Positions 52,100-56,700 of a stretch of DNA of 64,000 bases are shown one piece after another. Made by a program: the position numbers and the translations under genes. Within the stretch, counting starts at the first letter, position 1. Each line of letters opens with the position of its first letter. The DNA is taken from the NCBI GenBank assembly GCA_017506865.1, contig JAFCMP010000133.1, positions 1-64,000 on the forward strand, written 5' to 3'. The notes under the pieces were generated by a model, which was not told where the DNA came from, searched no databases, and worked only from the letters and a program-made list of their open reading frames with translations. This DNA comes from Tribonema minus (lineage: Eukaryota > Sar > Xanthophyceae > Tribonematales > Tribonemataceae).

Positions 52100-55000
52100 C
52101 AGCAGCAGCAGCAGCAGCAGCAGCAGCAGCAGCAGCAGCAGCAGCAGCAGCAGCAGCAGCAGCAGCAGCAGCAGCAGCAGCAGCAGCAGCAGCAGCAGCA
52201 GCAGCAGCAGCAGCAGCAGCAGCAGCAGCAGCAGCAGCAGCAGCAGCAGCAGCAGCAGCAGCAGCAGCAGCAGCAGCAGCAGCAGCAGCAGCAGCAGCAG
52301 CAGCAGCAGCAGCAGCAGCAGCAGCAGCAGCAGCAGCAGCAGCAGCAGCAGCAGCAGCAGCAGCAGCAGCAGCAGCAGCAGCAGCAGCAGCAGCAGCAGC
52401 AGCAGCAGCAGCAGCAGCAGCAGCAGCAGCAGCAGCAGCAGCAGCAGCAGCAGCAGCAGCAGCAGCAGCAGCAGCAGCAGCAGCAGCAGCAGCAGCAGCA
52501 GCAGCAGCAGCAGCAGCAGCAGCAGCAGCAGCAGCAGCAGCAGCAGCAGCAGCAGCAGCAGCAGCAGCAGCAGCAGCAGCAGCAGCAGCAGCAGCAGCAG
52601 CAGCAGCAGCAGCAGCAGCAGCAGCAGCAGCAGCAGCAGCAGCAGCAGCAGCAGCAGCAGCAGCAGCAGCAGCAGCAGCAGCAGCAGCAGCAGCAGCAGC
52701 AGCAGCAGCAGCAGCAGCAGCAGCAGCAGCAGCAGCAGCAGCAGCAGCAGCAGCAGCAGCAGCAGCAGCAGCAGCAGCAGCAGCAGCAGCAGCAGCAGCA
52801 GCAGCAGCAGCAGCAGCAGCAGCAGCAGCAGCAGCAGCAGCAGCAGCAGCAGCAGCAGCAGCAGCAGCAGCAGCAGCAGCAGCAGCAGCAGCAGCAGCAG
52901 CAGCAGCAGCAGCAGCAGCAGCAGCAGCAGCAGCAGCAGCAGCAGCAGCAGCAGCAGCAGCAGCAGCAGCAGCAGCAGCAGCAGCAGCAGCAGCAGCAGC
53001 AGCAGCAGCAGCAGCAGCAGCAGCAGCAGCAGCAGCAGCAGCAGCAGCAGCAGCAGCAGCAGCAGCAGCAGCAGCAGCAGCAGCAGCAGCAGCAGCAGCA
53101 GCAGCAGCAGCAGCAGCAGCAGCAGCAGCAGCAGCAGCAGCAGCAGCAGCAGCAGCAGCAGCAGCAGCAGCAGCAGCAGCAGCAGCAGCAGCAGCAGCAG
53201 CAGCAGCAGCAGCAGCAGCAGCAGCAGCAGCAGCAGCAGCAGCAGCAGCAGCAGCAGCAGCAGCAGCAGCAGCAGCAGCAGCAGCAGCAGCAGCAGCAGC
53301 AGCAGCAGCAGCAGCAGCAGCAGCAGCAGCAGCAGCAGCAGCAGCAGCAGCAGCAGCAGCAGCAGCAGCAGCAGCAGCAGCAGCAGCAGCAGCAGCAGCA
53401 GCAGCAGCAGCAGCAGCAGCAGCAGCAGCAGCAGCAGCAGCAGCAGCAGCAGCAGCAGCAGCAGCAGCAGCAGCAGCAGCAGCAGCAGCAGCAGCAGCAG
53501 CAGCAGCAGCAGCAGCAGCAGCAGCAGCAGCAGCAGCAGCAGCAGCAGCAGCAGCAGCAGCAGCAGCAGCAGCAGCAGCAGCAGCAGCAGCAGCAGCAGC
53601 AGCAGCAGCAGCAGCAGCAGCAGCAGCAGCAGCAGCAGCAGCAGCAGCAGCAGCAGCAGCAGCAGCAGCAGCAGCAGCAGCAGCAGCAGCAGCAGCAGCA
53701 GCAGCAGCAGCAGCAGCAGCAGCAGCAGCAGCAGCAGCAGCAGCAGCAGCAGCAGCAGCAGCAGCAGCAGCAGCAGCAGCAGCAGCAGCAGCAGCAGCAG
53801 CAGCAGCAGCAGCAGCAGCAGCAGCAGCAGCAGCAGCAGCAGCAGCAGCAGCAGCAGCAGCAGCAGCAGCAGCAGCAGCAGCAGCAGCAGCAGCAGCAGC
53901 AGCAGCAGCAGCAGCAGCAGCAGCAGCAGCAGCAGCAGCAGCAGCAGCAGCAGCAGCAGCAGCAGCAGCAGCAGCAGCAGCAGCAGCAGCAGCAGCAGCA
54001 GCAGCAGCAGCAGCAGCAGCAGCAGCAGCAGCAGCAGCAGCAGCAGCAGCAGCAGCAGCAGCAGCAGCAGCAGCAGCAGCAGCAGCAGCAGCAGCAGCAG
54101 CAGCAGCAGCAGCAGCAGCAGCAGCAGCAGCAGCAGCAGCAGCAGCAGCAGCAGCAGCAGCAGCAGCAGCAGCAGCAGCAGCAGCAGCAGCAGCAGCAGC
54201 AGCAGCAGCAGCAGCAGCAGCAGCAGCAGCAGCAGCAGCAGCAGCAGCAGCAGCAGCAGCAGCAGCAGCAGCAGCAGCAGCAGCAGCAGCAGCAGCAGCA
54301 GCAGCAGCAGCAGCAGCAGCAGCAGCAGCAGCAGCAGCAGCAGCAGCAGCAGCAGCAGCAGCAGCAGCAGCAGCAGCAGCAGCAGCAGCAGCAGCAGCAG
54401 CAGCAGCAGCAGCAGCAGCAGCAGCAGCAGCAGCAGCAGCAGCAGCAGCAGCAGCAGCAGCAGCAGCAGCAGCAGCAGCAGCAGCAGCAGCAGCAGCAGC
54501 AGCAGCAGCAGCAGCAGCAGCAGCAGCAGCAGCAGCAGCAGCAGCAGCAGCAGCAGCAGCAGCAGCAGCAGCAGCAGCAGCAGCAGCAGCAGCAGCAGCA
54601 GCAGCAGCAGCAGCAGCAGCAGCAGCAGCAGCAGCAGCAGCAGCAGCAGCAGCAGCAGCAGCAGCAGCAGCAGCAGCAGCAGCAGCAGCAGCAGCAGCAG
54701 CAGCAGCAGCAGCAGCAGCAGCAGCAGCAGCAGCAGCAGCAGCAGCAGCAGCAGCAGCAGCAGCAGCAGCAGCAGCAGCAGCAGCAGCAGCAGCAGCAGC
54801 AGCAGCAGCAGCAGCAGCAGCAGCAGCAGCAGCAGCAGCAGCAGCAGCAGCAGCAGCAGCAGCAGCAGCAGCAGCAGCAGCAGCAGCAGCAGCAGCAGCA
54901 GCAGCAGCAGCAGCAGCAGCAGCAGCAGCAGCAGCAGCAGCAGCAGCAGCAGCAGCAGCAGCAGCAGCAGCAGCAGCAGCAGCAGCAGCAGCAGCAGCAG

Positions 55001-56700
55001 CAGCAGCAGCAGCAGCAGCAGCAGCAGCAGCAGCAGCAGCAGCAGCAGCAGCAGCAGCAGCAGCAGCAGCAGCAGCAGCAGCAGCAGCAGCAGCAGCAGC
55101 AGCAGCAGCAGCAGCAGCAGCAGCAGCAGCAGCAGCAGCAGCAGCAGCAGCAGCAGCAGCAGCAGCAGCAGCAGCAGCAGCAGCAGCAGCAGCAGCAGCA
55201 GCAGCAGCAGCAGCAGCAGCAGCAGCAGCAGCAGCAGCAGCAGCAGCAGCAGCAGCAGCAGCAGCAGCAGCAGCAGCAGCAGCAGCAGCAGCAGCAGCAG
55301 CAGCAGCAGCAGCAGCAGCAGCAGCAGCAGCAGCAGCAGCAGCAGCAGCAGCAGCAGCAGCAGCAGCAGCAGCAGCAGCAGCAGCAGCAGCAGCAGCAGC
55401 AGCAGCAGCAGCAGCAGCAGCAGCAGCAGCAGCAGCAGCAGCAGCAGCAGCAGCAGCAGCAGCAGCAGCAGCAGCAGCAGCAGCAGCAGCAGCAGCAGCA
55501 GCAGCAGCAGCAGCAGCAGCAGCAGCAGCAGCAGCAGCAGCAGCAGCAGCAGCAGCAGCAGCAGCAGCAGCAGCAGCAGCAGCAGCAGCAGCAGCAGCAG
55601 CAGCAGCAGCAGCAGCAGCAGCAGCAGCAGCAGCAGCAGCAGCAGCAGCAGCAGCAGCAGCAGCAGCAGCAGCAGCAGCAGCAGCAGCAGCAGCAGCAGC
55701 AGCAGCAGCAGCAGCAGCAGCAGCAGCAGCAGCAGCAGCAGCAGCAGCAGCAGCAGCAGCAGCAGCAGCAGCAGCAGCAGCAGCAGCAGCAGCAGCAGCA
55801 GCAGCAGCAGCAGCAGCAGCAGCAGCAGCAGCAGCAGCAGCAGCAGCAGCAGCAGCAGCAGCAGCAGCAGCAGCAGCAGCAGCAGCAGCAGCAGCAGCAG
55901 CAGCAGCAGCAGCAGCAGCAGCAGCAGCAGCAGCAGCAGCAGCAGCAGCAGCAGCAGCAGCAGCAGCAGCAGCAGCAGCAGCAGCAGCAGCAGCAGCAGC
56001 AGCAGCAGCAGCAGCAGCAGCAGCAGCAGCAGCAGCAGCAGCAGCAGCAGCAGCAGCAGCAGCAGCAGCAGCAGCAGCAGCAGCAGCAGCAGCAGCAGCA
56101 GCAGCAGCAGCAGCAGCAGCAGCAGCAGCAGCAGCAGCAGCAGCAGCAGCAGCAGCAGCAGCAGCAGCAGCAGCAGCAGCAGCAGCAGCAGCAGCAGCAG
56201 CAGCAGCAGCAGCAGCAGCAGCAGCAGCAGCAGCAGCAGCAGCAGCAGCAGCAGCAGCAGCAGCAGCAGCAGCAGCAGCAGCAGCAGCAGCAGCAGCAGC
56301 AGCAGCAGCAGCAGCAGCAGCAGCAGCAGCAGCAGCAGCAGCAGCAGCAGCAGCAGCAGCAGCAGCAGCAGCAGCAGCAGCAGCAGCAGCAGCAGCAGCA
56401 GCAGCAGCAGCAGCAGCAGCAGCAGCAGCAGCAGCAGCAGCAGCAGCAGCAGCAGCAGCAGCAGCAGCAGCAGCAGCAGCAGCAGCAGCAGCAGCAGCAG
56501 CAGCAGCAGCAGCAGCAGCAGCAGCAGCAGCAGCAGCAGCAGCAGCAGCAGCAGCAGCAGCAGCAGCAGCAGCAGCAGCAGCAGCAGCAGCAGCAGCAGC
56601 AGCAGCAGCAGCAGCAGCAGCAGCAGCAGCAGCAGCAGCAGCAGCAGCAGCAGCAGCAGCAGCAGCAGCAGCAGCAGCAGCAGCAGCAGCAGCAGCAGCA
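52100..56700 (+). repeat. Giant (CAG)n trinucleotide tract, about 1,533 repeats
   Basis: 4.6 kb of CAG/AGC/GCA triplets without an interruption that I can see. Relative to the upstream minus-strand gene ANK-b it is CTG and starts about 300 bp after that gene's stop. The long poly-Ser, poly-Ala and poly-Leu frames through it are by-products. The length may be affected by assembly. Confidence 0.93.

What the first reader, a model, noticed from the sequence alone, without database searches (positions are those of the whole stretch)
52100..56700. A 4.6-kb CAG/CTG tract that belongs to an expansion series among paralogous loci
Seen: about 1,533 CAG triplets with no visible interruption. The flanks match those of ANK-a: on the gene strand, text after the ANK-b stop (AGCGCGTGTAG..., CTGCTTGC...) aligns with that after the ANK-a stop, and both lead into CTG triplets followed by GATGAT. 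ANK-a has about 6 triplets (25706-25730), ANK-c about 21 with interruptions (60702-60766), ANK-b about 1,533. In all three the tract is CTG relative to the gene and 120-300 bp 3' of the stop. This parallels disease-type 3' CTG expansion in animals, here in a protist. Inference: one paralogue lost its interruptions and ran away.
Basis: partly seen in the sequence, partly recalled or inferred. Interest (0 to 1): 0.9.

Follow-up and report, generated by a model that had tools for sequence, protein, structure and literature searches.

The report
Giant CAG repeats across algal genome
In the genome of a yellow-green alga, probably Tribonema minus, a 4.6-kilobase uninterrupted run of the triplet CAG behind a damaged ankyrin gene is one of about two dozen such runs, the longest 10.5 kilobases, a kind of DNA expansion known mainly from human disease.

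Summary
Confirmed: window 52100-56698 is 1,533 CAG units without an interruption. Both flanks are collinear with the 3' flanks of ankyrin paralogues. At least seven copies share the site; six have short tracts (about 6-21 units), only ANK-b is expanded. The 158-Mb, 554-contig genome (probably Tribonema minus, on one protein) holds 24 loci with at least 56-57 pure CAG units, the longest 3,508 units. Contexts differ: a transposable element, one probable polyglutamine frame, unclassified DNA. CCG and GAC words are far rarer, and in the 266 kb read no non-AGC motif of 1-6 bp forms an array above 207 bp. Four contigs begin or end inside CAG runs full of one-base indels, in three of them thickening towards the contig end, as thinly covered reads would look. 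This argues the tracts are real, though exact length and purity rest on a consensus. Best reading: a genome-wide, CTG-unit-specific, expansion-prone state. Allele variation, transcription and effect are untested.

The parts
52100..56698 (+). (CAG)1533 tract, CTG on the strand of ANK-b
   Evidence: exact count; TRF 100% match, 0% indel
56699..57001 (-). ANK-b stretch from the terminal stop (56999-57001) to the tract, homologous to the same stretch of ANK-a, -c, -d
   Evidence: a genome search with 56703-57060 returned only itself, missing even ANK-a, so it shows only that no close copy exists
51800..52099 (-). ANK-b flank on the far side of the tract, weakly but collinearly similar to the paralogues
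   Evidence: b-c 0 of 500, b-d 2 of 500, b-a 7 of 500 shuffles reach the score
56999..58453 (-). ANK-b: ankyrin-repeat gene with an in-frame TAG at 57470-57472, probably a pseudogene (58453 is the end of the match to ANK-c, not a proven start)
60974..62719 (-). ANK-c: open 581-aa ankyrin-repeat frame
60703..60765 (+). ANK-c tract: pure runs of 12 and 5 CAG with interruptions
23777..25588 (+). ANK-a: ankyrin gene whose match to ANK-c shifts frame near 24850
25706..25730 (+).

Best explanation
A short CTG microsatellite that came with an ankyrin gene when the family duplicated has run away at one copy, through the usual behaviour of CAG/CTG DNA: slipped strands fold into hairpins during replication or repair, and each retained hairpin adds units, faster as the tract grows. 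ANK-b is one of about two dozen such runaways, so the deciding factor is likely a genome-wide condition of this alga (repair or replication that retains CAG/CTG hairpins) acting on several hundred seeds, not something special to ankyrin genes. Shown: perfect tract, homologous short tracts in six paralogues, 24 giant loci, rarity of CCG and GAC words and of other motifs in the sample read. Inferred: the hairpin mechanism, the genome-wide state, and near-neutrality (ANK-b looks like a pseudogene).
For: 1,533 perfect units. Same site in seven paralogues, six short; flanks on both sides homologous, so no misjoin of unrelated loci. 24 loci with at least 56-57 pure CAG, against 399 counted runs of at least 11 units preceded by a base other than G; at least 19,870 of 24,705 14-unit CAG words lie in those 24 loci. 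Controls: GAC words 0+3, CCG 767+722. In 265,620 bases of window and fetched loci no non-AGC 1-6 bp array exceeds 207 bp, and that one is CAGCGG. Contig ends inside tracts carry one-base indels: C50 rises from 6 to 19 CAG segments per 500 bp, C15 falls from 5-8 to 1 going inward, C352 from 11 to 1. The CUG strand folds as a long hairpin (z -6.8). Hairpin-based CTG/CAG expansion is established (PMC3310812, passages).
Against: No reads, second strain or RNA were available. Lengths and purity come from a consensus apparently built from noisy reads, so some interruptions could have been polished away. C545 shows no gradient (8 and 8 segments in its two 500-bp steps), and C50 also holds stretches that look like true non-CAG interruptions near 386541-386682. 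The hairpin step and any repair defect are untested: no repair gene was searched. CCGCTG hexamer arrays also lengthen (at least 82 units at C72; 20 at C15:98568-98687), so specificity is to CTG-containing units rather than strictly to CAG. Five loci share one transposable-element end, C13 abuts an inner part of it, and up to three pairs of contigs may be the same locus twice.
Confidence: 0.72

Rival explanations
1. Assembly artefact: the tract is much shorter or heavily interrupted in the cell, and the consensus stretched or smoothed it, or two loci were joined through CAG.
For: The assembly looks built from error-prone reads (indels at contig ends), and simple repeats are hard to place; C15b (2,046) and C225 (3,508) share both flanks but differ in length.
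Against: Both ANK-b flanks are collinear with paralogues; tracts of this kind recur in mostly different flanks; near contig ends the letters look like raw reads and are still kilobases of CAG (C50 3.5 kb, C15 8.3 kb from the contig start).
Confidence: 0.13
2. The tracts are spread by a transposable element that carries or targets CAG/CTG arrays.
For: A search with one element end gave six copies, the five others 92-97% identical to it. Four adjoin giant tracts (C9, C225, C15 twice); C122 has a giant tract 1.5 kb on, the stretch between (26981-28499) not read; the sixth leads into (CTG)6 then (CCGCTG)20. C13 abuts an inner part of the element.
Against: No close copy of the ANK-b right flank exists, and in the 90 of 99 rows printed from the all-against-all comparison ANK-b flanks match no element sequence. 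19 of the 24 loci lack a match to this element end.
Confidence: 0.06
3. The tracts are maintained because they do something, e.g. chromatin packaging, a fragile or recombination site, or a regulatory RNA made from ANK-b.
For: Great length and purity; the CUG strand folds strongly.
Against: ANK-b is interrupted by a stop codon; copies of the same gene have short tracts; locations are heterogeneous.
Confidence: 0.06

Closest known systems
Human non-coding CTG/CAG expansions: DM1 (DMPK 3' UTR; recalled) and TCF4 in Fuchs dystrophy (PMC3504061, start of abstract in a search listing only)
   Same: Pure CAG/CTG array, hundreds to thousands of units (lengths recalled), outside the coding frame, CTG on the gene strand
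   Different: An alga; an assembly state rather than a patient allele; about two dozen loci at once; no known phenotype or instability data
Arabidopsis Bur-0 IIL1 GAA/TTC expansion (PMC5006647, PMC12177298; passages seen)
   Same: Natural triplet expansion outside animals
   Different: GAA/TTC in one intron with a temperature-dependent phenotype; here CAG/CTG at many loci. PMC5006647 (2016) calls IIL1 the only triplet-expansion phenotype known outside humans
Microsatellite accumulation on fish and reptile sex chromosomes (PMC3462698, PMC3215666; search listing and start of abstract only; that (CAG)n was a probe there is recalled, the listing shows only that the word occurs)
   Same: Long arrays of simple motifs
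   Different: Seen as cytogenetic blocks; here sequenced single tracts dispersed over many contigs

Membership tests
CAG/CTG dynamic-mutation expansion | Uninterrupted CAG/CTG array far beyond normal lengths | tested here: met
   1,533 units; 24 loci of at least 56-57 units
CAG/CTG dynamic-mutation expansion | Short counterpart at the same site | tested here: met
   Met at the level of paralogues only: six short homologous tracts
CAG/CTG dynamic-mutation expansion | Length differs between alleles, individuals or cells | tested here: inconclusive
   No close second copy of ANK-b. C15b 2,046 against C225 3,508 share both flanks at 92-96%, but alleles and duplicates cannot be told apart
CAG/CTG dynamic-mutation expansion | Transcribed, with RNA or protein effect | not testable with these tools
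   No RNA data; only folding was computed
polyglutamine expansion | CAG in frame within a protein | tested here: not met
   At ANK-b only two of six frames reach 60 aa on either side of the tract (37 before/91 after, polySer; 15 before/91 after, polyAla), neither polyGln. Locus C5 (341 units) does look like a polyGln frame, 122 aa before and 257 after, but found no homologue
transposon-borne microsatellite | Repeated element abuts the tract | tested here: not met
   At ANK-b: 90 of 99 rows seen; right flank only. Met at C9, C15 (two tracts) and C225
satellite DNA block | Arrays of hundreds of kilobases or more | tested here: not met
   Longest array read is 10.5 kb, dispersed over contigs; tracts running into unread sequence or contig ends could be longer
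satellite DNA block | Heterochromatic location | not testable with these tools
   no chromatin data

The most novel reading that the evidence does not exclude
Tribonema minus lives in a permanent, inherited state of genome-wide CAG/CTG hyper-expansion: several hundred seed tracts, 21 loci already with pure runs of 147 to 3,508 units, including a probable coding polyglutamine run of over 340 residues, all tolerated by a healthy cell. It would be a natural organism in which the balance that human cells lose at single disease loci is set differently for the whole genome.
Probability: 0.45. Interest if true: 0.9.

Novelty: new variant of a known kind. Interest (0 to 1): 0.74.

Why it matters
Large CAG/CTG expansions are studied mostly as human disease alleles or in engineered models (recalled); PMC5006647 names one triplet-expansion phenotype outside humans. 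A culturable alga with many kilobase-scale pure tracts would let one ask, in a natural genome, which repair setting permits expansion, whether length rules instability, and how a cell lives with long CUG or polyglutamine runs. The ankyrin family gives a built-in control: seven copies of one seed, one expanded.

Tried and rejected
Misjoin through CAG: rejected for ANK-b because both flanks align collinearly with paralogues. A coding polyglutamine repeat at ANK-b: rejected. A transposable-element origin at ANK-b: rejected. An ankyrin-specific phenomenon: rejected by the census. Foldback origin: seven tracts have a CAG/CTG switch at one end (C13, C15 twice, C225, C93, C9, C541), but the element family accounts for four of these, so I did not rely on it. 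Long frames across the tract (1,603-1,657 aa) are mechanical. tRNA and Rfam (gathering threshold) scans of the window found nothing. 18S identification failed three times. The Tribonema genome note (DOI recalled) is not held. Paper searches for a prior report: (listings and first abstract lines; passages read in three papers); none of the papers listed has a title or abstract start that describes giant CAG tracts in an alga, and the library holds open-licence papers only. Species rests on one protein: 272 of 293 aligned columns identical, 1 mismatch, 20 gap columns, against a partial gene model JKP88DRAFT_137106; the gaps may be a gene-model difference.

Limits of the counts: the census counts runs of at least 56-57 pure units that have four readable bases before them, so a pure tract starting exactly at a contig end would be missed. 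Five tracts were not read to one end (C468, C71, C48, C223, C122), so their lengths are lower bounds. The contigs C48, C71 and C379 have lengths that are multiples of 2,500 and C468 turns to N at 822501, which I take as withheld or missing sequence and did not pursue. The CCG search listed only the first places of 1,489, so its longest run genome-wide is unknown; the CCGCTG list was also cut off. One search printed 90 of 99 rows and compared 17 of the other 23 loci. The search with the ANK-b flank missed ANK-a, and that with the ANK-c end missed a and b, so more paralogues may exist.

Full report
WHAT WAS CHECKED. The tract at 52100-56698 is 1,533 exact CAG units; TRF scores 100% match and 0% indel. 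Outside this tract the longest pure CAG run in the window is 12 units, in ANK-c. The window is G000:C133:1-64000 of a 158,181,000-base assembly in 554 contigs.

THE PARALOGUE SERIES. The ankyrin copies a, b, c lie in the window (Pfam ankyrin hits), and a fourth, d, lies at C133:69.4-71.4 kb. A search with the ANK-c 3' end gave 5 matches: c, d, C157:557 kb, C133:145 kb and C133:153 kb. Short stretches past the last three show the same CTG tract followed by a very similar downstream sequence. So at least seven copies share one site; six have roughly 6 to 21 triplets with or without interruptions, and b has 1,533. For the stretch between stop and tract, 0 of 500 shuffles reach the score of b against a, c or d; beyond the tract 0, 2 and 7 of 500 do for b against c, d and a. 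ANK-b has one in-frame TAG, 57470-57472, and ends at 56999-57001; the ANK-a and ANK-d matches change frame; ANK-c is open for 581 aa. Leftover read errors could explain frame shifts, less easily a substitution.

THE GENOME-WIDE PICTURE. Exact (CAG)14 words number 14,108 forward and 10,597 reverse, against 0 and 3 for the reversed control GAC and 767 and 722 for CCG. Three left-end patterns that together accept any non-repeat letter in the four flanking bases, with a right-end search as a check that added no locus, give 24 loci with at least 56-57 pure units: C133, C352, C13, C15 (two), C89, C93, C130, C225, C379, C468, C112, C223, C9, C16, C50, C122, C5, C48, C71, C545, C541, C401, C517. Longest pure runs read: C225 3,508; C15b 2,046; C468 at least 2,035; C15a 1,657; C133 1,533; C16 1,296; C122 at least 882; C9 847; C71 578; C93 569; C223 at least 493; C379 456; C352 439; C541 392; C5 341; C401 301; C13 228; C48 226; C89 202; C130 148; C112 147; C50 99; C545 70; C517 61. 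At least 19,870 of the 24,705 words lie in these loci. Runs of at least 11 units preceded by a base other than G number 399, including fragments inside the error-rich ends. Loci are not all independent: C352 and C545 share a flank (99.4% over 160 bp), C9 and C122 (98.7% over 159 bp), and C15b and C225 share both flanks.

OTHER MOTIFS. In 265,620 bases of window and fetched loci, most of it chosen around CAG tracts, the only 1-6 bp arrays of 100 bp or more are AGC-type, one CAGCGG array of 207 bp and one CCG array of 100 bp. CCGCTG arrays also lengthen: 179 + 198 words of 14 units, with at least 82 units at C72. The bias is thus towards units containing CTG. Trinucleotide motifs other than GAC and CCG were not searched genome-wide.

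REAL OR ARTEFACT. C15, C545 and C352 begin, and C50 ends, inside CAG tracts, and there the run is broken by one-base gains and losses. In three of the four the breaks thicken towards the contig end (C50: 6, 9, 8, 11, 12, 19, 17 CAG segments per full 500 bp; C15 from the contig start: 6, 6, 5, 5, 8, 2, 2, then 1; C352: 11, then 1); C545, read over 1,041 bp only, shows 8 and 8. This is how thinly covered, error-prone long reads look, so the reads themselves seem to carry kilobases of CAG. C50 also holds short stretches that look like true interruptions. It follows that lengths and perfect purity are consensus values.

CONTEXTS. At C9, C15 (two tracts) and C225 the tract adjoins an element end conserved at about 96-97%; C122 has a 92% copy 1.5 kb before its read tract; a sixth copy leads into (CTG)6 (CCGCTG)20. 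C9 has a frame with a reverse-transcriptase RNase H domain on the other side. C5 looks coding: 122 aa, 341 Gln from CAG, 257 aa in one frame; a search with 138 residues from the end of the Gln run found no homologue. At ANK-b only two of six frames reach 60 aa on either side, neither of them polyglutamine.

SPECIES. One protein beside the C48 tract matches Tribonema minus JKP88DRAFT_137106 with 272 of 293 aligned columns identical, the rest being 20 gaps and one mismatch. Tribonema minus is a xanthophyte. I call the species probable. ANK-c itself found no Tribonema-named protein among the 120 listed, most of which carry no name; its best hit is a Balamuthia ankyrin protein at 50% over 64% of the query.

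MECHANISM. Hairpin formation by slipped CTG or CAG strands, rising with length, is the usual model of expansion (PMC3310812, passages). A 221-nt piece of the CUG strand at the tract edge folds as one long hairpin at -97.9 kcal/mol, z -6.8. What differs here is number: many loci at once. The simplest cause is a genome-wide repair or replication setting; this is inference and no repair gene was examined.

LITERATURE. Ten searches in an open-licence library listed no paper whose title or abstract start tells of giant CAG tracts in algae. PMC5006647 states that only one triplet-expansion phenotype is known outside humans (passages).

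Noticed in passing
13611-18958: Integrase core domain (rve, E 1.7e-12) and, in a neighbouring frame, a weak match to the poxvirus A32-type ATPase (E 3.8e-4, below the curated cut-off), with a further long frame between them on the same strand: resembles a Polinton-like or virus-like element (label recalled). Described only.
   Followed up: no
30369-32765 and C133:64001-66401: A reverse-transcriptase frame (RVT_1, E 3.4e-9) has a 96.5% identical inverted copy just beyond the window.
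   Followed up: no
11212-12222: A 241-bp unit tandemly repeated 4.2 times at 98% match.
   Followed up: no
38828-40528: A second ankyrin-repeat frame (567 aa, several Pfam ankyrin models).
   Followed up: no
L044:3865-6024 (C5:380864-383023): Probable coding frame with 341 CAG-encoded glutamines, 122 aa before and 257 aa after.
   Followed up: partly
C72:42149-42640 and beyond: Pure CCGCTG hexamer array of at least 82 units; list cut off, true length unknown.
   Followed up: no
L036:6373-9501 (C130): Helitron-type helicase frame (Helitron_like_N, PIF1) about 1.6 kb from a CTG tract whose longest pure run is 148 units.
   Followed up: no
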